A stretch of 52,270 nt of DNA from a virus: positions 1 to 52,270 of the IMG/VR virus record IMGVR_UViG_3300032173_000009. One strand, 5' to 3'. Under the pieces are notes generated by a model. It had not been told where the DNA came from and did no database searches. It saw only the letters and a list, made by a program, of their open reading frames with translations. A program made the translations under genes and the position numbers. The stretch's first letter is position 1. Each line of letters starts with the position of its first letter. Below are positions 1,774 through 28,724 of this stretch, piece by piece.

Positions 1774-1802
1774 TTGACAAGTGATTAAACAACCCTTATG
1801 CT
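1774..1802 (+). promoter_or_regulatory. Promoter with palindromic operator
   Basis: TTGACA (1774-1779), a 17-base spacer, then TATGCT (1797-1802). The spacer holds GTGATTAAACAA (1781-1792), one base off the palindrome GTGWTTAAWCAC seen in two other promoters here (17223 and 19519). It drives the DUF932 gene. The -10 covers the upstream ATG at 1798, which argues that the gene really starts at 1846. Confidence 0.7.
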
Positions 1803-1845
1803 TGGGGTGTCGAAGAAGGAGTGGAGCCAAGAAAGGAGAACAAGG

Positions 1846-2832
1846 ATGGCCCACGAGATAGAGATCGTCGATGGAGTGGCCCGTATGTTCTACGCGGGTG
1901 AGGTCCCCTGGCATGGGCTAGGGACGAGAGTGGAGCACGCCCTCACCAGTGAGGAGGCCATCGTAGCGGCCGGCCTCGACTGGGAGGTTGAGCTCCGCCC
2001 CCTGTATAGCGGCCGGACCTTGAGGACAGCGAAGCGAGTGGACCGCTTCCTGGCCATCAGCCGGACGTCCGACAACAAGGTGCTCGGTGTTGCCACTGAG
2101 CGGTACACTCCCCTCCAGAACAAGGAGGCATTCACGTTCACTGATAGCTTGGTGAAGGACGGAGTCATGCGGTACGTGACCGCAGGCTCGCTCATGGGTG
2201 GGCGGAAGGTCTGGCTATTGGGCCAAATGGAGGGCGATTGGAGGATCAACGGCGAGCAGTACTGCCAGTACATTCTGCTTACGGCTGGGCACGACGCCAG
2301 TACGGTCGTTGACATACTGCCCACAAACGAGCGCGTAGTCTGCCACAATACGCTCCAGTGGGCTCTGGCAGCGGGACCTGCAGCAGCTAGGGAGTTCCGG
2401 ATTATCCACAATCCAGCACTCCCGACCAAGCTGGAGGCGGCGCGTAAGGCCCTGGAGATCACGACAGAGGCTTTCAGGAACTTGCAGGAGCTCCTAGAGG
2501 TAGCCCAGCAGCACACACTGGAGGCTGAGCAGGTGAAGGTGGTCACGGAGGGCCTGTTTGGAAGCCTGGACGAGGCCACTAAAGGCCAGCGTGCCAAGGC
2601 CATCGAGACCTTCCAAGCCATCTACGCAGCAGAGTCAGCACTGAACGGAGAGACGGCCTACGCGATGGTGAACGCCATCGCGGGCTATGCCGACCACTCG
2701 AAGCGCTACCATGGAGACTCAGAGCAGCGGGCCGAGAGCCGCCTGCTAAGCACCATAGTGTCAACTGGTGGTGCCTACCGCTTCAAGGCCAAGGGCATCG
2801 ACCTGGTCAAGAAGGTAGCACAGATCTCCTAG
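1846..2832 (+). CDS. DUF932 phage/plasmid-like protein
   Basis: 328 residues matching the DUF932 (phage/plasmid-like TIGR03299) pattern: an N-terminal GEVPWHGLGTRVE segment, a central VVCHNTLQWAL segment, and a C-terminal helical part ending in an arginine-rich stretch. The family is common in phages and plasmids; its biochemical role is unsettled. ATG 1846 is chosen because AAAGGAGAA lies just upstream and the longer ATG at 1798 sits in the -10 box. It is a single gene behind an operator-bearing promoter and is followed by a strong hairpin, so it is probably a separately controlled early transcript. Confidence 0.8.
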   Translation: MAHEIEIVDGVARMFYAGEVPWHGLGTRVEHALTSEEAIVAAGLDWEVELRPLYSGRTLRTAKRVDRFLAISRTSDNKVLGVATERYTPLQNKEAFTFTDSLVKDGVMRYVTAGSLMGGRKVWLLGQMEGDWRINGEQYCQYILLTAGHDASTVVDILPTNERVVCHNTLQWALAAGPAAAREFRIIHNPALPTKLEAARKALEITTEAFRNLQELLEVAQQHTLEAEQVKVVTEGLFGSLDEATKGQRAKAIETFQAIYAAESALNGETAYAMVNAIAGYADHSKRYHGDSEQRAESRLLSTIVSTGGAYRFKAKGIDLVKKVAQIS

Positions 2833-2905: not shown

Positions 2906-3160
2906 ATGAGCAAAGCACCTTGGGACCCCTACTCAGAGCAAATGGAGTCCCTTGAGCGGGCTGAGGACGCAGAGATGCTCAAGCATGCTCACGGGGTCGT
3001 CAGGGGCATCCTAGCCAGGGACGGAGACAGGCGCAAGGCAGCCAAGGCCCTACTTGAGCTAGTGCACTCTGAGCGTCTGCATGGAAACCTAGCAGTCCAG
3101 GTGGCGATGTACTACGGTCTAGCGGACGAGCTACAAGCCATCTCGTTGCGTGGAGGGTAA
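2906..3160 (+). CDS. Small hypothetical protein
   Basis: 84 residues, predicted mostly helical, with charged heptad-like runs (LERAEDAEMLKHAH) and no recognised domain. Start ATG 2906 is preferred over an earlier in-frame GTG because GGAGG lies 8 bases upstream of it. The stop codon overlaps the first degenerate repeat of the 18-bp array that follows. It lies between the DUF932 gene and the TIGR-like locus; any link to either is a guess from position. Confidence 0.55.
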   Translation: MSKAPWDPYSEQMESLERAEDAEMLKHAHGVVRGILARDGDRRKAAKALLELVHSERLHGNLAVQVAMYYGLADELQAISLRGG

Positions 3161-3450
3161 GTGGGATTCTTGTGGAGAACGGGTGGTCGATGGCGAGCGG
3201 CGATTGCATGGAGATCGGCACAATGATGACGAGCCGCTACTAACTGGAGAACGGACACGCTGTGGCGAGTGGCTAGCGTTTGAAGAATGGCAATGAGTTG
3301 GCGAGCGGCCGTAGGCTGGAGAACGGTCTTCGAGTGGCGAGCGGTCTTCTCTTGGAGAATGGGGCGAATGTGGTGAGCGAGTCAAGGGTGGAGAACGGTT
3401 TCATACTGGCGAGCGGTGAACGATTGTAGAATGGCGGCTAAGTGGCGACC
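3155..3450 (+). repeat. TIGR-like guide array 1
   Basis: A strict 18-bp period: 10-bp repeats separated by 8-bp variable spacers. Two repeat types alternate: A = TGGAGAACGG (at 3173, 3209, 3245, 3281, 3317, 3353, 3389, 3425) and B = TGGCGAGCGG (at 3191, 3227, 3263, 3299, 3335, 3371, 3407, 3443). A degenerate copy lies at 3155 over the preceding stop codon, and the last copy is truncated. That makes 15 spacers between clear repeats, or about 8 composite units of 36 bp. Repeats carry point changes; spacers look unrelated apart from GTGGTCGA (3183-3190), which recurs in array 2. The alternating two-repeat, two-spacer 36-bp unit matches the published description of TIGR arrays, whose transcripts become dual-spacer guide RNAs. 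The transcribed strand is not proven; plus is assumed from the neighbouring gene. Confidence 0.85.
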
Positions 3451-3488
3451 TTCGTTAAGAAGGCGCGAAGAAAGGAGTCCAGAAAGTT

Positions 3489-4313
3489 ATGGTCACGGAC
3501 GTAAAGGTCAGGGAAGTCTCACCTTTGAGGCACCTGCACGACACGCAGGTCTCCCTGGAGAAGTTCCGAATAGCCCTTGGCAATAGGTGCTCAGCTCTGA
3601 GTCGTGGAGTAGATGAAGCTGCTAGGCCGGTGCCAGAAGTCTACGAGCGCCTTCACCAAATGGCGACAGACATGGAGAAGGAAATCGACGTAGCTATAGC
3701 CGCTGAGCTGGACAAGTGGCCAGTCTACCGCTCCTGGCTTTCACACGTCAAAGGCATAGGGCCTTCTCTCGCAGGCCAGATGCTGGCCCTCCTCCTCCCG
3801 CCTATCCCCAGCAAAGGACCGTCCTCCTGGTATAAGGCAGCAGGACTTGCTCCCGAGTTGCGGCCCGACGGTCTGACTAGGCTGCCTCGGCCTTCTCGGG
3901 TCCGCTGTCCAGAGTGCTCTAGTACTACCTTCCAGCAGAAGCAGGGAGAGAAGACCTGTACCGAATGTGGGCGCCCCTTAGCCAAAGGCGAGGGCAAAGT
4001 CTCCTACCACCCCTGGCTCCGGCGCTGCCTCTACAATGTGGGCACGTCCTTTGTCCGCAACGGTGGCTACTACAGAGTCATCTATGAGCAGACAAAGGAG
4101 CGGCTACAGCATCTCCACGAAGGTGACAAGGACTGGCCACCAATACGAGTAGACCGGACGGCCCGTTGGAAAATGGTCAAGGTCTTCCTAGCTCACCTAT
4201 GGGAGGCTTGGAGCGAAGTCGAGGGCATTCCTGCTCGTCTGCCCTATGTCGTAGAGACGTATGGGCACCAGTACATTCCACGGCCTCTGCCCACGGGAGA
4301 CGGCAAGATATAG
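3489..4313 (+). CDS. Tas-like Nop/IS110-C-terminal domain protein with zinc ribbon
   Basis: 274 residues. Residues 15-80 are predicted helical (coiled-coil-like). Residues 86-97 (HVKGIGPSLAGQ) form a helix-hairpin-helix as in the C-terminal half of IS110 transposases; WYKAAGL follows at 114-120 and YHPWLRRCLY at 173-182, again IS110-like. Between them is an inserted zinc ribbon with cysteines at 140, 143, 157 and 160. There is no IS110 N-terminal DEDD nuclease domain and no HNH or RuvC motif. The Nop fold of box C/D snoRNPs, IS110 and TIGR-associated (Tas) proteins is related, and this gene sits between two dual-repeat arrays, so a nuclease-less Tas that binds tandem-spacer guide RNAs is the best reading. 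AAAGGAG (3472-3478) precedes ATG 3489. The alternative, a truncated IS110 transposase, does not explain the arrays. Confidence 0.75.
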   Translation: MVTDVKVREVSPLRHLHDTQVSLEKFRIALGNRCSALSRGVDEAARPVPEVYERLHQMATDMEKEIDVAIAAELDKWPVYRSWLSHVKGIGPSLAGQMLALLLPPIPSKGPSSWYKAAGLAPELRPDGLTRLPRPSRVRCPECSSTTFQQKQGEKTCTECGRPLAKGEGKVSYHPWLRRCLYNVGTSFVRNGGYYRVIYEQTKERLQHLHEGDKDWPPIRVDRTARWKMVKVFLAHLWEAWSEVEGIPARLPYVVETYGHQYIPRPLPTGDGKI

Positions 4314-4748
4314 CGGTCCGTCATTGGAGAACGGGAGCTAAGTGACGAGCGGTTTGCTGGTGGAGAACGGGTGGTCGATGGCGAGTGGCGTCATGGTGGA
4401 GAATGGTCTAGCCTTGGCGAGCGGCGACTTCATGGAGGACAGCGGATTGGTGGCGAGTGGATGAATGCTGGAGAACGAGGCGCCGGTGGCGAGCGGTGAG
4501 AAAATGGAGAACGGTGTCAAGCTGGCGAGCGGTCGCTGAGTGGAGAACCAGATAATATTGGCAAGCGGAAGCGCGCTGAAGAATGGAATGAATGTGGCGA
4601 GCGGTGAATAGTTGGAGAACGGGCGGGGTCTGGTGAGCGACGAAGCGGTGGAGAACGGGAGCTTCATGGCGAGCGGTGGCCGTTTGGAGAACGGTACAGA
4701 GATGGTGAGCGGAGGCTCTCTGAAGAATGGCAAACGGTTGGTGAGTTA
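4307..4748 (+). repeat. TIGR-like guide array 2
   Basis: Same 18-bp period and same repeat orientation as array 1. There are 24 clear repeats from 4325 to 4748: A type (TGGAGAACGG) at 4325 and every 36 bp, B type (TGGCGAGCGG) at 4343 and every 36 bp. A half-degenerate copy lies at 4307 over the stop codon of the Tas-like gene. There are 23 spacers of 8 bp between clear repeats. The phase never slips over 24 units, although single bases vary inside repeats (TGACGAGCGG, TGGAGAACCA, TGGCAAGCGG and others). Variants are most frequent near both ends; the last copy is TGGTGAGTTA. It runs to one base before the next ATG. The spacer GTGGTCGA (4371-4378) is shared with array 1. Confidence 0.87.
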
Positions 4749-4749
4749 G

Positions 4750-7188
4750 ATGATCTGCTCCCGCTGTCTCCTAGGCAAAACGACCACTCCTGTCCCTGGT
4801 GAGGGACCTGTGCCCTGCGACCTGCTGCTTGTGGGTGAGGCACCAGGTGCGGTGGAGGAAAGAGAGCTGAGGCCGTTCGTAGGGGACGCAGGGCGTGTTC
4901 TCAACGGCCTGCTCAAGGACGTGGGCCTCAGTCGGGAGCAGGTCCGCATTACCAATATCGTCCACTGCCGACCACCTGGGAACAGGAAGCCGGAGGACGA
5001 GGAGCTGCTAGCCTGCGCTGTCCACATGGCAGCCGAGCTAGGTCAGGTCAAGCCCAAGCTCGTCGTGGCACTAGGGGGCACGGCAGCTAAGGCTCTGACG
5101 GGGAAGGAGAAGATCGGGGCGGGTCGAGGGCGCGTCCTTGCGCTCAAACCTGAGTACCGTAGCTCTATCCCAGTAGTCGTCACCTACCACCCAGCCTACT
5201 ACCTACACCGGAACGGTGACAAGAGCATCCTGGACGGCATAGCTACGGACTTCAGGTTTGCGCTGAAGGTAGCCGATGCTCTTGTCACCGTTCCGGTGAA
5301 GGGCGCTGCAGCCAAGCAAGACATCCTAGTGACTGAGAATGAGGTAGAGATCGCCTCCGCTCTCCGTCAGCTTGCGTCCTGCGACCTGCTGGCCTGCGAC
5401 TGCGAGTGGGAAGTCCTGCCCAACGGCCGCTTCCAGCCCTGGAGTAGGTGTGAGGGCAAGGCGCCCAGGTTAGTCAGCATCGCCTTGGCTGGTAGGCTAG
5501 CAGACGGTCCACTAGCTGTAGCCGTCAAAGCCGATAGCAAGGCATTCCCGGTCGTCGTCAAGATACTGAGCAAAGTACCGACGATCTACCACAATGCGCC
5601 GGCGGACTTGGCCTGGCTCCTGTCCTTGGGTGCCAAGCCTATACTAGCTGGCGACACCTTGCTCCTAGCCTCGCTGCTAAACTTGCAGCACTCACTTGGC
5701 CTTAAGGTCCTAGCCGCCGTGCTCACGGAAGTACCAGCAGGCTGGGACACTGAGGTGCAGGAGGGCATCCTGGGCACGCTCCCCGCCACCAAAGCTGCTT
5801 GGGATGCCCTCCTCAAGTATAACGGGCAGGATGCCCTCGCCACCCTCTTACTCAACGAGCGCCTACTGCAGATGGTGAGGGAGCAGCAGCGTGAGGCGGT
5901 TCTTCCCCTCTACCGGAAGCTCCTGGGAGCGAGCTATGCCTTGGTCAAAGCCGCCCTAAGAGGTGCGCCCCTTGATGGGAAGATGCTCTCTGAGCTGAAA
6001 GAGCAAGCAGACTACCGGATCGTCTCACTACGAAAAGCAGTTGCAGCGGAGTTTGGCATGCCTGGGTTCGTCAAGAAGGAGGCACACTCCTCCGACCTCG
6101 TGGCTGCTGAGCTTGAGCATCGTGGAGTGAAGCTGCCCAAGACGCCAAAGCTGCAGCGCGCCTCGCTCAACGCCGCCGCTCTCCTGCCTTATGCTAGCCG
6201 GCCCGACGTAAAGCCACTCATAGCGCTAGCCAAGGTAGTGAAGCTGGAGAACACCTACCTTGGCCCCTGGACGGAGCTGCTCAAGGAGCAGGGAGAGGCA
6301 CGGCTCCATACTGGGTATAAGTTGTGGGTTGCTAGGACGGGGCGCTCTTCGACGGAGGGCGAGGCAGGAGGCACTATCCAGCAGTTCCCACGTGACTCCC
6401 AAATGCGCCGCCTCGTTCGCGCACCCGACGGCTACGTTATAGTCTCTGCTGACCAGTCGCAGGTTGAGCTACGAATCGCTGCCTGGCTAGCTGACGAGAC
6501 GACGATGAAGCGCTTCTTCCGGGAAGGCATCGACATTCACACTGCTACTGCCGCCTGGCTGAAGGCCAGCTCTAGAGGCATCCCCCTAATCTCCTACCTG
6601 GCTCACCAGCGGGAGTATATGGAGGAGGTGACGAAAGAGGAGAGGCAGGGAGCTAAGCCTATCAACTTCGGCCTACTCTACGGTGGGCAAGAGGAGGTGC
6701 TAGTTGGTGTGGCTCTGAGGGACTATGGTATTACTCTGACCAAAGAGCAGGCTACGGTGGCAAAGAGCGGCTTCTTCGAGCTCTACCCGAAGCTAGTGGA
6801 CTGGCACAAGTCGGCCTGGCACTGGGTCAACAAGGGAGCTGTGCCTACCCCACTGGGGCGCTGGCGCAACCTGCCCTCAGAGGACGGAGAGGACGGGCTG
6901 GCTAAGCAGAGGAAGGCGATCAACACTCCAGTCCAGGCTACGGCCTCAGACCTCTGCCTCATTTCTCTGGCTGAGATCGACAGGCTGCTGGACGGGCTGG
7001 ACTCGTATATTATAGGGTTCGTCCACGACTCAGTACTGTTGGAAGCCAGCGAGAGGCACTTGGCCCAGGTCGTCGAAGTAGTCAGGCGCTGCATGGAGAA
7101 CCCAGACCTCAGCGAGTTTGGGCTCACCCTTCCAGTGCCCTTGGTAGCGGACATAAAGGTCGGGAAAACATGGGGAGATTGTGCCTGA
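4750..7188 (+). CDS. polA: Fusion of family 4 uracil-DNA glycosylase-like domain and family A DNA polymerase
   Basis: 812 residues in three parts. Residues 1-185 resemble a family 4 Fe-S uracil-DNA glycosylase: CSRC near the N-terminus, VGEAPG, FVGDAGR, CRPPGNR and a TYHPA motif. About 190-385 is a DEDDy 3'-5' exonuclease with CDCEWE near 216, HNAPADLAWLL and YNGQDA near 357. About 390-812 is a PolA palm and fingers: SADQSQVELR near 566, O-helix KPINFGLLYG, and VHDSVLLE near 757. It is probably the replicative polymerase. The glycosylase part may be structural rather than active, as suggested for other phage polymerases with this fusion. It starts one base after array 2; no standard ribosome site is present, but GGTGAG in the last repeat could serve. 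A new promoter follows the gene. Confidence 0.92.
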   Translation: MICSRCLLGKTTTPVPGEGPVPCDLLLVGEAPGAVEERELRPFVGDAGRVLNGLLKDVGLSREQVRITNIVHCRPPGNRKPEDEELLACAVHMAAELGQVKPKLVVALGGTAAKALTGKEKIGAGRGRVLALKPEYRSSIPVVVTYHPAYYLHRNGDKSILDGIATDFRFALKVADALVTVPVKGAAAKQDILVTENEVEIASALRQLASCDLLACDCEWEVLPNGRFQPWSRCEGKAPRLVSIALAGRLADGPLAVAVKADSKAFPVVVKILSKVPTIYHNAPADLAWLLSLGAKPILAGDTLLLASLLNLQHSLGLKVLAAVLTEVPAGWDTEVQEGILGTLPATKAAWDALLKYNGQDALATLLLNERLLQMVREQQREAVLPLYRKLLGASYALVKAALRGAPLDGKMLSELKEQADYRIVSLRKAVAAEFGMPGFVKKEAHSSDLVAAELEHRGVKLPKTPKLQRASLNAAALLPYASRPDVKPLIALAKVVKLENTYLGPWTELLKEQGEARLHTGYKLWVARTGRSSTEGEAGGTIQQFPRDSQMRRLVRAPDGYVIVSADQSQVELRIAAWLADETTMKRFFREGIDIHTATAAWLKASSRGIPLISYLAHQREYMEEVTKEERQGAKPINFGLLYGGQEEVLVGVALRDYGITLTKEQATVAKSGFFELYPKLVDWHKSAWHWVNKGAVPTPLGRWRNLPSEDGEDGLAKQRKAINTPVQATASDLCLISLAEIDRLLDGLDSYIIGFVHDSVLLEASERHLAQVVEVVRRCMENPDLSEFGLTLPVPLVADIKVGKTWGDCA

Positions 7189-7194
7189 AACCCC

Positions 7195-7223
7195 TTGACA
7201 TAGCCAGCGAGGATGATTAATAT
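7195..7223 (+). promoter_or_regulatory. Consensus sigma70-type promoter
   Basis: TTGACA (7195-7200), exactly 17 bases, then TAATAT (7218-7223), five of six bases matching the -10 consensus. ATGATTAATAT overlaps the -10 and resembles half of the operator found at 1781, 17229 and 19526, but is not a full palindrome. It drives the recombination operon that starts at 7261. Confidence 0.75.
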
Positions 7224-7260: not shown

Positions 7261-8304
7261 TTGAATACATCCCTCTCAGCAATAGGCTCGTGGCGTGAGT
7301 GCCAGCAGAAGTACTGGTACCGGTATGTCGAAGGGCTAAAGCCCAAGCTAGAGCGCCCAGCCCCCCTCCTAGGCTCCATCCTACACCGACTCCTAGAGCG
7401 CTTCTACCTATTCATTCCTGGTGACCCAGACGACGCTCTGAGGCAAGCTATCGAGTTCACCTGCGGAGAGTTCCAGCCAAAGATAGACGGCCTCGTCTTT
7501 GCTGCCCAGACTGCTGGGGAGGATCAGCTCGGCCTGGACTTGCAGGACCTCCTGCCAAGAGCACTGCGCATCTTCGAGCGCTACTTCCTCGTCAGAGGCA
7601 GACCCGACTTCGAGCAGCTCTGGCCAGTACTGGTTGAGTACCGCTACACGCTGGAACTCGACCGAGGACTCCAGCTAGTTGGCATTGCCGACCTGGTAGC
7701 TGAGCAGGACGGACAGCGTCTCTTGTGGGAGCACAAGACGACTGGGTCCGTGCCTGGGCAAGGCAGAAGGCTCCGAGACTTGCAGACCACGCTAATGAGT
7801 GCAGCTCTGGAAGAGCTCGGTCATGGGCCGATCAACGGTGTGGTCTGGAACTACATAAGGACGAAGGAGCCAACGGTCCCGGCCTTGCTCAAGAACGGCA
7901 TGCTCACTACTCGGGCAGACCTAGACTCTACTTGGGCGGTCTACCAAGCGGAGATACAGAAGCACGGCCTGAGGGAAGAAGACTACCTGCCGGTCAAGGA
8001 GAGACTGGAAGGCAGGGAGGAGGCAGTCTTCTTCCCTCGGGTCGTCCTTCCGCTCATGCAGGCTGAGCATATCCTACTAAGGGACTTTATTGCCACGGCT
8101 CGCACCGTCCAAGCGATCCGTGAGTCTGGTGGGAACTACATTCCGGTTAGGAGCGTGGGCTTCGGCTGTGACTTCTGCGAGTATAACAAGCTGTGCGAAG
8201 CAGTGATCTTGGGAGGAGACGAGGAGGAAGTGGTTCAGCGTCTATTCGTCAGGAAGGAAAGCAAGGAGGTGGCAAGTGACAACGGCGACACGAGTAGCCC
8301 CTAG
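7261..8304 (+). CDS. PD-(D/E)XK exonuclease, Cas4/RecB-like with Fe-S cysteines
   Basis: 347 residues. The N-terminus has the RecB/AddB-type opening (GSWRECQQKYWYRYVEGL) followed by GSILHRLLERF. The nuclease core is GIADLVAEQ then LLWEHKTTGS, giving the D...E-x-K triad near residues 140-158. A C-terminal CDFCEYNKLC and the early cysteine match the four-cysteine iron-sulphur cluster of Cas4/AddB-type nucleases. It probably resects DNA ends together with the Sak4-like ATPase whose start overlaps it by 29 bases. The start is TTG 7261, with GAAAGGA (7242-7248) upstream. Confidence 0.82.
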   Translation: MNTSLSAIGSWRECQQKYWYRYVEGLKPKLERPAPLLGSILHRLLERFYLFIPGDPDDALRQAIEFTCGEFQPKIDGLVFAAQTAGEDQLGLDLQDLLPRALRIFERYFLVRGRPDFEQLWPVLVEYRYTLELDRGLQLVGIADLVAEQDGQRLLWEHKTTGSVPGQGRRLRDLQTTLMSAALEELGHGPINGVVWNYIRTKEPTVPALLKNGMLTTRADLDSTWAVYQAEIQKHGLREEDYLPVKERLEGREEAVFFPRVVLPLMQAEHILLRDFIATARTVQAIRESGGNYIPVRSVGFGCDFCEYNKLCEAVILGGDEEEVVQRLFVRKESKEVASDNGDTSSP

Positions 8305-13468: not shown

Positions 13469-14518
13469 ATGACAAGTAGTGACCTCGTTCCGCTAGAGGG
13501 TATAGTTGTCGAAGTCCGAAGCCCGGAAGAGTGGGCAGGCATCATCCGCGCCGACCTCAGCCAGGCTGTCCTGGGCTTCATCATGGCAGGCCAGCACCTA
13601 CGGGATGCCCGACAGCAGATAGAGTATGGAAAGTGGGAGATCTGGCTGCGCGAGGATGTGGGCATTAGCCGGTCAACAGCATACAGCCTGATGGCTATCT
13701 CAGAGCATCCTATGTTGGCAGATGTTCAATGCATTGAACATCTGCCTCCCTCCTGGGGCACCCTCTACGAGCTTTCCCGCCTTGAGCCGCCGCTACTGGA
13801 GGCAGCCATCGATGCTGGCGACGTGCACCCTGATCTTGAGCGTGAGCAAGCAAGAAAAGTGGTCGCTGAGTATAAGATGCGGGCTGCTGGCGTACACTTT
13901 GACCTGCGGCACGGCGACTTTCAAACCGTCTTAGAGGACTTAGAGCCAGGCACGGTAGATGTCATAATCACAGACCCTCCCTACTCGGAGGAGTATCTTC
14001 CTCTCTATGAGGCGCTGTCTGCTAAAGCAGCGATCTGGCTGAAGCCTGGTGGCCTGTGCGCTGTAATGAGTGGGCAGACGTACCTTCCACAGGTCTTCCA
14101 AGCGCTCGTAAGCCACCTTGACTACCACTGGACGATGGCCTACCTGACACCCGGTGGTCAGGCTGTACAGGTATTCCCACGTAAGGTTATCACATTCTGG
14201 AAGCCTATCATCCTCTGTCGGAATGGAGAGGGAGCAAGTCCAGAGTGGTTTGGTGATGTGCCTAAGAGCGATGTGAACGACAACGACAAGCGCTTCCACG
14301 AGTGGGGGCAGAGCGAGTCCGGTATGGCAGATGTCGTAAGTAGGCTAACCCAGGTTGGTGAGCTCGTCCTCGATCCCTTTATGGGAGCGGGCACTACAGG
14401 AGTCGCAGCCCTGGCTCGGGGGCGGTCCTTTATTGGCTGCGACTTAGATGCTGAGAATGTAGAAACGGCGCGAACACGTTTGGAGGCGATTGCTATTGAG
14501 AGGCTCCGACTACCGTAG
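13469..14518 (+). CDS. DNA methyltransferase (DPPY type) with N-terminal DUF3102-like region
   Basis: 349 residues. The C-terminal part is a beta-class amino-methyltransferase: catalytic TDPPYSEEY near residue 170 comes before the SAM-binding LDPFMGAGTTG near 303, the order found in beta-class enzymes such as CcrM (adenine-N6 or cytosine-N4). The first 130 residues (AGQHLRDARQQI, GISRSTAYSLMAISEHP) resemble DUF3102/ParB-associated helix-turn-helix regions of phage proteins and may bind DNA. No restriction partner is next to it, so it is probably an anti-restriction or regulatory orphan enzyme. AAAGGAAA precedes ATG 13469. Confidence 0.85.
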   Translation: MTSSDLVPLEGIVVEVRSPEEWAGIIRADLSQAVLGFIMAGQHLRDARQQIEYGKWEIWLREDVGISRSTAYSLMAISEHPMLADVQCIEHLPPSWGTLYELSRLEPPLLEAAIDAGDVHPDLEREQARKVVAEYKMRAAGVHFDLRHGDFQTVLEDLEPGTVDVIITDPPYSEEYLPLYEALSAKAAIWLKPGGLCAVMSGQTYLPQVFQALVSHLDYHWTMAYLTPGGQAVQVFPRKVITFWKPIILCRNGEGASPEWFGDVPKSDVNDNDKRFHEWGQSESGMADVVSRLTQVGELVLDPFMGAGTTGVAALARGRSFIGCDLDAENVETARTRLEAIAIERLRLP

Positions 14519-15358: not shown

Positions 15359-15543
15359 GGAGGAGAAAAGTGAGCCCGCTACGTCGCTACAAGCCAGTGC
15401 TTTGCGAGGAGTGTGAGCAACCACTATCACACCACCAGCCTAGCAAGGAGTGTCCCACAATCTACGACATCATCAAGCAATTCTGTGGGAAGGAGTATGC
15501 CGACCAAGTCGTTGAGAAAGGGCTGCTAAGGGTGTCATGCTAG
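15355..15543 (+). CDS. Small zinc-finger-like protein between queD and queE
   Basis: 62 residues. A CEEC pair, two histidines (LSHHQ) and a further cysteine (KECP) suggest a metal site; the basic N-terminus (RRRKVSPLRRYK) suggests nucleic-acid contact. Start ATG 15355 overlaps the queD stop (ATGA), and the end overlaps queE by 7 bases, so it is translated with the pathway genes. No family is recognised. Confidence 0.6.
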   Translation: MRRRKVSPLRRYKPVLCEECEQPLSHHQPSKECPTIYDIIKQFCGKEYADQVVEKGLLRVSC

Positions 15544-16298
15544 AAGTGGTGGAATACTACATAGCGCCCCAGGGGGAAGGCCCTAACCTTGGCCGCTCCT
15601 CCCTGTTCCTGCGACTTGCCCTCTGCAACCTGCGTTGCTCCTGGTGCGACTCTAAGTTCACCTGGAGCAAGAATAACCCAGGCTATAACCAGTTTCAGTT
15701 CTACGAGCCGGACGAGCTAGTAGGCGTGCTCGTACAGTACGTCAGGGAGCAGCCCGTTGTCCCTCGTGGTTTAGTCGTGACAGGTGGTGAGCCCTTGCTA
15801 TACCAGCGGGAGCTGCCCTACGTGATTGGCAAGTACTGGAGCACCCTGGACCAGCTCAGTTTGGTTGAGCTTGTGGCAGACGCTGAGGTCGAGACAAACG
15901 GCACAATAGTGCCGTCCCAGGGTATGCTAGAGCTTTGCGACTTCAACGTCTCGCCTAAGCTGGCTACAGCAGGAAACGCCAAAGTGCCTCTGAAGGTACT
16001 CTGGAACGAAGCGGCAACCAAGGCCTTCTTGAAGAACGGTGCGACCTTTAAGCTTGTAGTCCGCCCTGACGATGAAGTAGTCCTAATGGCCTACCTCAAG
16101 TTCCTCCGGGAAGTCGCAAATGAGCTTGAGCTGAAGTGGGCGTCAGTCCTAGACAGCATTTACCTCATGCCTGAGGCCACGACTCAGGACGAGCTCGTGG
16201 CTAGACAGGGCTACGTTATTGAGCTAGCTCAGAAACTGGGCGTCAGAGTGACGACGAGGCTGCAAGTCCTAGCCTTTGGAAAGGAGCGCCGACGGTGA
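15537..16298 (+). CDS. queE: QueE, 7-carboxy-7-deazaguanine synthase (radical SAM)
   Basis: Third step: radical SAM ring contraction of carboxytetrahydropterin to CDG. The [4Fe-4S] site is CNLRCSWCD (C-x3-C-x2-C) near residues 32-39, preceded by the QueE signature [20 protein letters not shown] near 83 and VETNGT near 122 are the usual SAM-binding segments. 253 residues is normal for the family. It overlaps the small zinc protein upstream and the FolE fusion downstream (GTGA), confirming one transcript. Confidence 0.92.
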
Positions 16299-17221
16299 GA
16301 AAGTTAAGCATGGAGGAAGTTCAGCACCTGGCCGTGCTCTGCGCTAGACAGATCGCGGACGAGGTAGCTCCGCACCCGTTGCTAGTTGCTATCCCACGGG
16401 GTGGTATACCTGCGGCAGCACTCATTGCTGCCGCATCGTCTCCCTCGCCAGTTATCGTCTCTTCTACTGAGCCTGTCCGGTTGAGAGCGCCACGGGTCTT
16501 GGTAGACGACATTAGGGTGACGGGCCGTACGGTTGAGCTAGCTCGTGAGAAGTGGGACCCAGACATGGTGGTGACGCTAGTCGCCAAGGGTACAGGTGCA
16601 AGAGACGATGCCTACGCCGCGCTGGAGGTACCAGAGGGAGAATGGGTGCAGTTTCCCTGGGAGGTCGCCGACCAGGACGCTGGCACACCCGAGGACGCAG
16701 TGCGCCGGCTGATAGAGTGGCTAGGTGACGACCCAAACCGCGAAGACCTCCTGGACACTCCTGCCCGGGTGCTGCGCTTCCTGTCGGAGTTCCAGGCTCA
16801 GGCTGGAGCTGCAGTCAACGTTAGGTGCTTCCGCGCTGACGGCATAGACGACCTAATGGTCGTCTCAGACATTCCCCTCTACTCCTTATGCGAGCACCAC
16901 CTCATGCCCTACCTTGGCACCTGCCACGTTGGCTACTTGCCCTCAGGCCAAGTACTAGGCCTTTCCAAGGTTGCTCGCCTCGTCGTGCAGCAAGCGTCGA
17001 GGCTCACCATTCAGGAGCGGCTGACAAGGCAGATAGCAGCGGCAGTGTCTGAGGCCTGCGGCTCACCAAGCGTCGCAGTCGTAGTCAAGGCCGTCCATAC
17101 CTGCATGGTTATGCGTGGGGTCAAGGCAGTGGGCTCAGAGACTGTGACTTCAGCCATGCTCGGCTACTTCCGTGAGCAGGCAAGCCTCCGAGCGGAGTTT
17201 CTACGGCTAGTGGGGGCTTGA
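16295..17221 (+). CDS. folE: Phosphoribosyltransferase-like domain fused to GTP cyclohydrolase I (FolE)
   Basis: 308 residues with two domains. Residues 1-120 are phosphoribosyltransferase-like: [12 protein letters not shown], then the PRPP loop [14 protein letters not shown] near 69-82. Residues 128-308 are a complete GTP cyclohydrolase [18 protein letters not shown], zinc ligands in [11 protein letters not shown] and HTCMVMRGV, and SKVARLV. FolE supplies dihydroneopterin triphosphate, the pathway entry substrate. The fused transferase domain is unusual and could feed or channel purine nucleotides, but its substrate cannot be read from sequence. GTG 16295 overlaps the queE stop; AAAGGAG lies just upstream. 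Confidence 0.9.
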
Positions 17222-17271: not shown

Positions 17272-17712
17272 ATGGCGAAAGCACCAGTGAGGGACTTTGA
17301 GGCGGAGAGGATTTGCTCCCAGTGTCTAGGACCACTGGAGGCGGCCGACGGGCACTACCACGAGAAAATGGATGCAAAGTGGTCGGACGTCGTCTGCTGC
17401 ACGTGTGCAGGCTGTGGCGATACTCCCGTAGCAAAAGAGCCCAAGGCCACCAAGGAGCCAGCTAGGGTTGAGGAGGAGGCCGTCAAGGAGAGCAAGCCCG
17501 CCATTCAGCAGTACACTGGTGGAGTGGACAATGGGGAAGCTCTCGAAGCTATCGTGGCGGCAGCGAAGACCCTGAGGAAGGAGAAGTTCTCGGCAGCGGA
17601 TGTCACAGGGCAGCTTCATGGAAGGCTAGAGTGGCAGGACGTCCTTCGCACTATGAAGGAGTCCAGCAGGTTCGAGAGGATCTCCTCCCGGTCTTGGAGG
17701 TTGGTTGATTGA
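17272..17712 (+). CDS. Zinc-finger/winged-helix-like hypothetical protein
   Basis: 146 residues in three visible parts: an N-terminal cysteine-rich segment (CSQC, later CCTCAGC) likely to bind zinc, a charged K/E/P-rich linker near 55-85, and a C-terminal 60 residues (FSAADVTGQL, WQDVLRTMKESSRFE, SSRSWRLVD) that look like a winged helix. AAAGGAGG (17259-17266) precedes ATG 17272. First gene of an operator-controlled operon, overlapping the HTH gene by four bases (TTGA). Confidence 0.65.
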   Translation: MAKAPVRDFEAERICSQCLGPLEAADGHYHEKMDAKWSDVVCCTCAGCGDTPVAKEPKATKEPARVEEEAVKESKPAIQQYTGGVDNGEALEAIVAAAKTLRKEKFSAADVTGQLHGRLEWQDVLRTMKESSRFERISSRSWRLVD

Positions 17713-26903: not shown

Positions 26904-28724
26904 TTGGACTTGCTGGCTTTGTCCGAGGCGAGGCAGTTTGCTTGGGAAGAGACTGAGAATGAGATCCGCAACCGCATCAAGGACCCAGGAGACTTTCAGC
27001 CGGACTCGTTCAGGCGTATTCAGCTACAGCATACGGGCAAGCCTGTTTTTGCCATCATCGGCAGGCTGAAGGGTGAGACTACGACCACCATCCAAGCCCT
27101 CCGATTCCCCAAAGATCAGTGGTCAGTGGGCGATGCTAAAGCCTGGGCAGCCGCTCATCCTATGAGCGAGCTGCTACCTGGGGAGGTTAGTGGTATGGAG
27201 TTTGCTGCCAAGACGGACAACGGCGAGGAGTACACCAGCGACGACTACCTGGTCGTGCCCGACCCCGACCTGCCGTCAACTTGGAAGCTGCGGATCAGGG
27301 AATATGTAGGAGGCACAAAGCAGATCACTCAGGCACAGTTAGGTAGGGCGGCCGCTGCCTTAAGTCCAGGTGGATTTCGTGGGCAGCCAGTACAGCTTAC
27401 TCCTGAGCAGCGACGCTCAGCTATCTCAAAACTGCGTGGCATGTATGCTGCACAGGGAGTTAAGCCAGAAGACATGCCGGCCCAGATAAGGGCCAGAGAG
27501 GAGGGTCTTATGGGCCTTGCTTCCGCCGCAGGCGAATGCCGCTTGCTGCTTGATCTCGCGCCTTACAAGGCGTCTGAGCCACCCGACTGGATTCAGGTTG
27601 TGCCAGCGCCTGGTACCTGGCAGCATCCGCGCTACGGCGAGATCAAGATCACTTCGCAGATACTAAAGGAGTTCAAGGCAAACTTCGACCGGACGGTTTA
27701 CCAGGAGCACATCCCCATCGACGCTGAGCACGAAACCAAAGCCTCCGGTGCTCTTGGGTACTACAAAGAGGTCAAGGTTGGTGGCCCAGATGGCGAGGGG
27801 GGGCTCTGGGCTCGGGTGGACTGGACGGACCGGGGCGAGGAACTGCTCAAGACCGAGCGCTTCAAGTACTTCTCGCCTGAGTGGTTCGACGAGTGGAAGG
27901 ACCCAGCGACAGGGCAGGTTTTCAAGAACGTCCTTATCGGAGGTGCACTGACAACGCGGCCTTTCTTCAAGGACCAGGCCCTTAAGCCCCTCGTGGCTTC
28001 TGATGGCTTCTTATGGGAGGTGAGCCTAGACGATGGTGGTAATGAAGACTGGGTAGAACTTAAGCAGGGCAGCCTAGACCCTGCTGACGTTCACGAGGAC
28101 AAACTGGTAGTTATTCACCGAAAGCGAGGCAGTCTATTGAGCACTAAGTACACAGAGGACCAGCTCACTGAGTTGGTCGATGAGCGGGTGGCTGAGGCCA
28201 CAAAGACCTTCAAGGATGAGCTGGAGAAAGCCAAGACAGCGGCTGAGACCTATAAGGCTGCGGCTGAAGAGAGCAAGAAGGGGCTAGAGACTGCGACTGG
28301 ACGTATCGCCGAGCTTGAGTCCCAGGCTCTGCACCGTGCCTTCACGGACCTCATCCTGGGCCGCGACCCGTCTGCCGACGGCGCTCCGCCCTTTGTCGGA
28401 GAGCCGAAGTCCCATATGGACATGATGCTCCTTATCGCTGAGGCAAAGGGCATCGGTCCTGAGCTGAAGGCCTACGTGGATCAGCAGCGGGCTCACGCCA
28501 AGCAGCTCAAGGAGGCTGGTCTCTTCAAGGAGATCGGCACGAGTGGCGGCGAGACACCAGCCTCGGTCAAGGAAGAGTTTGAGCAGGCTGCAAAGGCGGC
28601 GATGGAGGCCAACGCGAAGTTGACCTATGCGGAAGCCGTCCAGAAGATCGCAACTGAGCAGCCAGGCCTGTATGACCGGTACGACCGGGAGATCACAGGC
28701 CGCAAGTTTTCGTTTAGCGGCTAG
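26904..28724 (+). CDS. Mu gpI-like prohead protease/scaffold fusion
   Basis: 606 residues from TTG 26904 (a longer frame reaches back to ATG 26739). The middle, about residues 230-380, matches Mu I-type protease: PAPGTWQHPRYGEIKIT, HIPIDAEHET, ARVDWTDRGEELL, FKYFSPEWFDEW and VLIGGALTTRPFF. The N-terminal 200 residues (YTSDDYLVVPD, LTPEQRRSAISKLRGM) look like a separate substrate-type domain. The last 200 residues are helical coiled-coil, as expected for a scaffold. It would shape and mature the prohead before the capsid proteins encoded next. The start is uncertain. Confidence 0.8.
   Translation: MDLLALSEARQFAWEETENEIRNRIKDPGDFQPDSFRRIQLQHTGKPVFAIIGRLKGETTTTIQALRFPKDQWSVGDAKAWAAAHPMSELLPGEVSGMEFAAKTDNGEEYTSDDYLVVPDPDLPSTWKLRIREYVGGTKQITQAQLGRAAAALSPGGFRGQPVQLTPEQRRSAISKLRGMYAAQGVKPEDMPAQIRAREEGLMGLASAAGECRLLLDLAPYKASEPPDWIQVVPAPGTWQHPRYGEIKITSQILKEFKANFDRTVYQEHIPIDAEHETKASGALGYYKEVKVGGPDGEGGLWARVDWTDRGEELLKTERFKYFSPEWFDEWKDPATGQVFKNVLIGGALTTRPFFKDQALKPLVASDGFLWEVSLDDGGNEDWVELKQGSLDPADVHEDKLVVIHRKRGSLLSTKYTEDQLTELVDERVAEATKTFKDELEKAKTAAETYKAAAEESKKGLETATGRIAELESQALHRAFTDLILGRDPSADGAPPFVGEPKSHMDMMLLIAEAKGIGPELKAYVDQQRAHAKQLKEAGLFKEIGTSGGETPASVKEEFEQAAKAAMEANAKLTYAEAVQKIATEQPGLYDRYDREITGRKFSFSG

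What the first reader, a model, noticed from the sequence alone, without database searches (positions are those of the whole stretch)
3155..4748. TIGR-like RNA-guided locus with arrays on both sides of a zinc-ribbon Tas-like protein
Two arrays with a rigid 18-bp period (10-bp repeat, 8-bp spacer) alternate TGGAGAACGG and TGGCGAGCGG and flank a Nop/IS110-C-terminal-like gene. Seen directly: periodicity, alternation, phase-keeping over 24 units, spacer variability. Established knowledge: TIGR-Tas systems reported in 2025 use 36-nt dual-spacer guide RNAs and Nop-domain Tas proteins. Inference: this phage carries a nuclease-less version with about 20 composite units, possibly for programmable DNA binding.
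Basis: partly seen in the sequence, partly recalled or inferred. Interest (0 to 1): 0.97.

Follow-up and report, generated by a model that had tools for sequence, protein, structure and literature searches.

The report
Phage RNA-guided TIGR-TasA locus
This phage carries a two-part RNA-guided DNA-binding system of the recently described TIGR-Tas kind: 20 built-in guide RNAs in two arrays around a gene for a guide-binding protein with no DNA-cutting part, which matters because what this nuclease-free form does in nature is still unknown.

Summary
Two phase-locked arrays, 3155-3448 (8 units) and 4307-4745 (12 units), alternate an edge repeat TGGCGAGCGG and a loop repeat TGGAGAACGG with 8-nt spacers, giving 20 composite 36-nt units. 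They flank a 274-aa protein. That protein passes the curated NCBIfam cut-off for TIGR-Tas (123 bits against 100). Its AlphaFold model (pLDDT 87) matches solved TIGR-TasR (Z 21.6, 2.1 A over 208 residues) better than IS110 (Z 15) or Prp31 (Z 7). It has no RuvC or HNH domain, so it is TasA. Of 42 related loci examined, 37 carry a 36- or 38-nt array next to tas. The locus is a genuine TIGR-TasA system, a new member of a known kind; array position and lack of nuclease are already described. Less ordinary: a zinc ribbon inserted in the Nop domain, shared with one other phage. That phage has 66% identical TasA and identical repeats but no shared spacer and no other shared gene, so the module appears to move between unrelated phages and swap its guides. 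In the published target geometry the guides match neither the phage's own genome nor relatives' genomes above chance. Natural targets and function remain unknown.

The parts
1774..1802 (+). sigma-70-like promoter TTGACA-17-TATGCT, candidate promoter of the operon that holds the TIGR module
   Evidence: consensus scan, 10 of 12 matches; the next promoter-like site lies at 7195-7223, just after the polymerase gene
1798..2832 (+). DUF932 gene, same operon upstream
   Evidence: Pfam PF06067 E 5e-41
2909..3160 (+). small ORF of unknown function whose stop codon overlaps the start of array 1
   Evidence: no family match
3155..3448 (+). TIGR array 1: 8 tigRNA units; 5'-truncated edge 3158-3164, 3'-truncated edge TGGCGA 3443-3448
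3449..3463 (+). hairpin CCTTC-GTTAA-GAAGG directly after the truncated edge, before the tasA ribosome-binding site (AAAGGAG 3471-3477)
   Evidence: sequence and RNA fold; the analogous array end in relative G027 also carries a hairpin
3489..4313 (+). tasA: 274-aa solo Nop-domain Tas protein, no nuclease domain
   Evidence: NCBIfam NF052498 123 bits, cut-off 100; structure Z 21.6 to TasR 9mty
3897..3983 (+). zinc-ribbon insertion in the Nop domain (CPEC...CTEC, residues 137-165)
   Evidence: Pfam zinc-ribbon models, best E 4e-4, below the curated cut-off; the same insert is in the closest relative L100
4307..4745 (+). TIGR array 2: 12 tigRNA units; 5'-truncated edge AGCGG overlaps the tasA stop codon, 3'-truncated edge TGGTGAG 4739-4745
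4750..7188 (+). UDG-domain plus family A DNA polymerase gene, directly downstream of array 2
   Evidence: Pfam PF03167, PF01612, PF00476

Best explanation
A dual-repeat TIGR-TasA system. An operon transcript from the promoter at 1774 would run through DUF932, a small ORF, array 1, tasA, array 2 and the DNA polymerase gene. The arrays would be cut by a host RNase, with TasA's help, in the middle of each edge repeat into twenty 36-nt tigRNAs (half edge - spacer A - loop - spacer B - half edge). A TasA dimer would hold one tigRNA by the matching box motifs of edge and loop (UG...CGG in both) and use the two 8-nt spacers, one on each DNA strand, to find, open and bend a 16-bp site reading 5'-A-(0 to 2 nt)-revcomp(B)-3'. 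With no nuclease, the likely effect is a roadblock to transcription or replication of foreign or host DNA. Shown here: anatomy, family membership, predicted fold, lack of nuclease domain, loop covariation, spacer turnover, no self-targets. Inferred from the family: transcription, processing, binding. The purpose (interference with competing elements or the host) is a guess at about 0.45.
For: TIGR_Tas model above its cut-off. PDB phmmer hit to TasR, E 9e-14. Fold: TasR Z 21.6, TasH about 20, IS110-type 14.9, Prp31 6.8. 37 of 42 related loci have a 36/38-nt array beside tas. Truncated edges at both array ends and a strong terminator-like hairpin after the last array of G027. Loop position 3-8 pair keeps G-C, A-U or G-U in 52 of 57 repeats, with covariation p 1e-4. 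Repeats identical but spacers unshared between window and G027: 0 of 2960 pairs within one mismatch. No self-targets: 0 perfect among about 165 tigRNAs from 11 viral loci, counts equal to a re-paired null. Published biochemistry of TasA, TasR and TasH: PMC12045711.
Against: No RNA or binding data for this locus. Box C reads CGG here, not the CCA of TasR arrays. No natural target was found for any spacer pair, so the DNA-targeting step rests on homology. A rho-independent terminator was not found after either window array. The covariation count may be inflated by copied units (TGAAGAATGG occurs three times in the window).
Confidence: 0.87

Rival explanations
1. An ordinary minisatellite next to an IS110 remnant.
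For: IS110 C-terminal similarity exists (NCBIfam IS110, 13.9 bits) and the arrays are tandem repeats.
Against: IS110 lies far below its cut-off while the Tas model is met; the fold is closer to Tas than IS110; array association across 37 of 42 related loci; spacers vary freely while repeats are fixed; arrays are phased with truncated ends.
Confidence: 0.02
2. TasA here regulates the phage's own genes or packaging by binding its own DNA, guided by tigRNAs.
For: The module sits in the replication operon. One self-match with a single mismatch (unit A2.3 at 17614, 1-nt gap). Spacer A2.6B is the complement of a phage -35 box (GCTTGACA at 1772), but in the wrong order and with 2 mismatches.
Against: Self-matches do not exceed the re-paired null in 11 loci nor in 12 archaeal-virus loci (no self or in-clade match with at most 1 mismatch in either order). 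Site 17614 lies inside an ORF, not a promoter.
Confidence: 0.08
3. TasA supplies targeting or DNA bending to another protein (a nuclease, recombinase or the neighbouring polymerase) that binds the zinc ribbon.
For: Zinc ribbon inserted in the Nop domain and conserved in the closest relative. A PD-(D/E)XK nuclease gene (7261-8304) and a polymerase gene lie nearby. Faure et al. suggest TasA could aid integrases.
Against: The relative G027 shares the zinc ribbon but none of the window's neighbouring genes, so no phage-encoded partner is conserved; a host partner remains possible. Most other TasA proteins lack the ribbon.
Confidence: 0.13

Closest known systems
TIGR-TasA dual-repeat systems (e.g. 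Flavonifractor plautii FpTIGR; Faure et al. 2025, PMC12045711)
   Same: Solo Nop-domain Tas protein, alternating edge/loop repeats, 36-nt unit, arrays upstream and/or downstream, truncated edges at the array ends.
   Different: 8-nt spacers with 10-nt repeats rather than the usual 9-nt spacers; boxes read UG...CGG; zinc-ribbon insertion; hairpin between array 1 and tasA.
TIGR-TasH of Salicola phage CGphi29 (SpTIGR); solved TasH structures 21kl, 9w04
   Same: Phage-borne; 16-nt combined spacer; similar Nop fold to solved TasH (Z about 20).
   Different: TasH has an N-terminal HNH nuclease; this protein does not.
Acidianus tailed spindle virus TasA (KU645528, ATSV_B343)
   Same: Viral TasA with cysteine pairs in the same part of the Nop domain and a downstream array.
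   Different: 38-nt period, 9-nt spacers, different repeats, about 25% identity; the two cysteine pairs are split around the conserved NGK segment.
TasA of IMGVR_UViG_3300031949_001708 (L100/G027)
   Same: 66% identical TasA with the same zinc ribbon, identical edge and loop repeats, arrays on both sides.
   Different: No shared spacer, no other shared gene, a 69-residue extra insertion in TasA, and an additional unlinked mini-array at 28528-28627.
IS110/IS621 bridge-RNA recombinases and Nop5/Prp31
   Same: Nop-type RNA-binding fold.
   Different: IS110 has a DEDD catalytic domain and a single bridge RNA; Nop5/Prp31 (known from the literature) use k-turn RNAs with L7Ae/15.5K.

Membership tests
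TIGR-Tas (dual-repeat) | Tas protein with Nop-type fold closest to TasR/TasH | tested here: met
   NF052498 123.2 bits against cut-off 100; model Z 21.6 to TasR
TIGR-Tas (dual-repeat) | two distinct alternating 8-12-nt repeats with short spacers, 36-nt unit, next to tas | tested here: met
   lag-36 identity 0.55-0.60 against shuffle maximum 0.37
[quoted passage not shown]
   both arrays
TIGR-Tas (dual-repeat) | rho-independent terminator after the array (described as typical, not required) | tested here: not met
   only a hairpin without a T run after array 1; array 2 runs into the polymerase gene. Relative G027 has a strong terminator-like hairpin
TIGR-Tas (dual-repeat) | matching box D (UG) and box C motifs in edge and loop | tested here: met
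   both repeats start TG(G) and end CGG; TasR's CCA is replaced by CGG in both repeats, matching the reported rule that the boxes may diverge but do so together
TIGR-Tas (dual-repeat) | arrays processed to 36-nt RNAs bound by Tas | not testable with these tools
   needs RNA sequencing
TasA subtype | no RuvC or HNH nuclease domain | tested here: met
   no Pfam nuclease match; the model aligns to TasR from its residue 37 onward, with only 11 residues before the first helix
TasA with ParB partner | parB-like gene in operon | tested here: not met
   none of the seven genes scanned around tasA matched ParB in Pfam
IS110 transposase | N-terminal DEDD catalytic domain and IS110 model score | tested here: not met
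   13.9 bits against cut-off 140, no DEDD match

The most novel reading that the evidence does not exclude
A mobile TIGR-TasA module whose zinc ribbon is an effector or DNA-clamping domain in the Nop protein. The module moves between unrelated phages with its repeats but exchanges all its guides, and serves as a cleavage-free, reprogrammable block on host genes or competing phages.
Probability: 0.3. Interest if true: 0.75.

Novelty: new member of a known kind. Interest (0 to 1): 0.52.

Why it matters
The function of nuclease-free TasA and the origin of TIGR spacers are open questions. This locus adds a compact phage example with 20 guides, a zinc-ribbon variant, and a close relative that shares protein and repeats but no guide and no other gene. 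That pair suggests modular transfer with complete guide turnover. The negative target searches argue against self-targeting as the general role. Both points can be tested directly.

Tried and rejected
Self-target scan in the published geometry (derived here from the 8-nt 3' overhang and the C-5 rule as 5'-A-gap-revcomp(B)-3'): nothing above a re-paired null. Cross-target scans among about 30 viral records, G001 and G027: nothing convincing; three perfect hits of one G013 unit fall in related archaeal viruses and amount to one site. About 240 tigRNAs from 12 archaeal-virus loci (two of them with the same array): no self or in-clade match with at most 1 mismatch. A tigRNA conserved in several of these viruses: six viral contigs matched, about the number I would expect by chance; the one read in detail (L135) looks like a bacterial-phage contig; no match in 398 genomes of the phylum (how many are true hosts is unknown). 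Protein-coding reading of the arrays: stops interrupt most frames and the open frames differ between arrays. Rfam: no match. RNA folds of single units: no common structure. More members of the zinc-ribbon clade: only G027 in viral contigs; the genome search of 301 genomes was empty but had no positive control.

Full report
What is there. The window is a 52,270-base virus record with tailed-phage genes: large terminase, portal and tape measure. Two arrays lie at 3155-3448 and 4307-4745. Read on the + strand, every 36 bases hold an edge repeat (TGGCGAGCGG), an 8-nt spacer A, a loop repeat (TGGAGAACGG) and an 8-nt spacer B; there are 8 and 12 such units without any phase break. Identity at lag 36 is 0.55 and 0.60 against a maximum of 0.37 in 2000 shuffles each. 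Spacer columns are close to random while repeat columns are nearly fixed. Each array starts with a truncated edge that overlaps the stop codon of the preceding gene and ends with a truncated edge; array 1 is followed by a small hairpin and then the ribosome-binding site of the 274-aa gene.

Which repeat is which. Array ends use TGGCGAGCGG as the truncated repeat, which by the published rule makes it the edge. The other, with an A-rich centre, is the loop. Across the window and its closest relative, loop positions 3 and 8 are G-C in 44 repeats, A-U in 5 and G-U in 3 (Fisher p 1e-4), in line with the short box C/D pair seen in TasR. Copied units may inflate this count.

The protein. It meets the curated NCBIfam model for TIGR-Tas (123.2 bits, cut-off 100) and falls far short of the IS110 model (13.9, cut-off 140). 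An AlphaFold model from 31 rows (pLDDT 86.8, pTM 0.81) matches TIGR-TasR at Z 21.6 (2.1 A over 208 residues) and TasH at about 20, against about 15 for IS110-type recombinases and 7 for Prp31. It begins almost directly with the coiled coil and has no HNH or RuvC match, so it is of the TasA type. Residues 137-165 form a likely zinc ribbon (CPEC...CTEC). Pfam matches are below their curated cut-offs, but the cysteines are kept in the closest relative. Cysteine pairs also occur in the Nop domains of Acidianus tailed spindle virus, its relatives and L011, in part at other positions. The main text of Faure et al. does not mention zinc (supplements could not be read).

Relatives. Scans of IMG/VR and GTDB contigs gave 42 related loci that were examined; 37 have a 36- or 38-nt periodic array within 1.5 kb of tas: 7 upstream, 26 downstream, 4 on both sides. 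The closest, L100/G027 (IMGVR_UViG_3300031949_001708), has 66% identical TasA with the same zinc ribbon and identical repeats, three arrays around tas and a fourth small one about 16 kb away. Of 36 window proteins searched, only TasA has a match in G027. No spacer is shared within one mismatch in 2960 comparisons, while inside each genome some spacers or whole units are copied between arrays. The module therefore looks horizontally transferred, with guides replaced and arrays reshuffled by copying of units; this is inference from two genomes.

Targets. From the published cuts (8-nt 3' overhangs, C-5 rule) the target must read 5'-A-(0-2 nt)-revcomp(B)-3'. In the window the best self-match is unit A2.3 at 17614 (1 mismatch, 1-nt gap), which the null gives in roughly one re-pairing in five and which lies inside an ORF. 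Over 11 loci (about 165 tigRNAs) there is no perfect self-match and no excess over re-paired spacers in the published order; cross-matches between viruses are likewise at chance. In 12 archaeal-virus loci with longer spacers there is not one self or in-clade match with at most one mismatch. Guides thus do not point at the own genome or at the relatives held here. Where they point remains unknown; host genomes of this phage could not be tested because the host is unknown.

How it most likely works. By homology with TasA, TasR and TasH: read-through transcription of the operon (candidate promoter 1774), processing in the edge repeats, TasA dimer with one tigRNA, pairing of the two spacers with opposite strands, unwinding and bending of a 16-bp site without cutting. 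The effect would be interference with transcription or replication of another element or of host genes. The targeting steps are established in the literature for TasR and TasH, and 36-nt RNA binding for TasA; none is shown for this locus.

Verdict. The locus is a new member of a known kind (TIGR-TasA), with a zinc-ribbon variation and an informative close relative. Its biological role is as open as for TasA in general.

Noticed in passing
window 15537-17221: Radical SAM (QueE-like) gene followed by GTP cyclohydrolase I (PF01227, E 1e-57): looks like part of a 7-deazaguanine (preQ0) pathway, possibly for DNA modification.
   Followed up: no
window 4750-7188: Uracil-DNA glycosylase-superfamily domain fused in front of a family A DNA polymerase with a 3'-5' exonuclease domain.
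   Followed up: no
L115:8528-8628 (G027:28528-28628): Unlinked mini-array of about two tigRNA units about 16 kb from tas in the relative, same repeats, sharing spacer TTCAAGGA with the main array.
   Followed up: partly
G008, G022, G023, W02 (Acidianus tailed spindle virus clade): One tigRNA (TCAGCTATT / TTAATGTAC) is conserved across several viruses and duplicated in W02, hinting at a conserved target; none was found.
   Followed up: partly
G027 arrays: Spacers are rich in purines in both positions A and B (363 of 592 bases), which target-strand bias alone would not explain.
   Followed up: no
window 13469-14518: Apparent N6/N4 DNA methylase.
   Followed up: no
window 17223, 19519, 26469, 51630: Several well-formed TTGACA promoter-like sites on the + strand, some resembling the TTGACAA(G)TGATTAAA motif of the promoter at 1774.
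   Followed up: no
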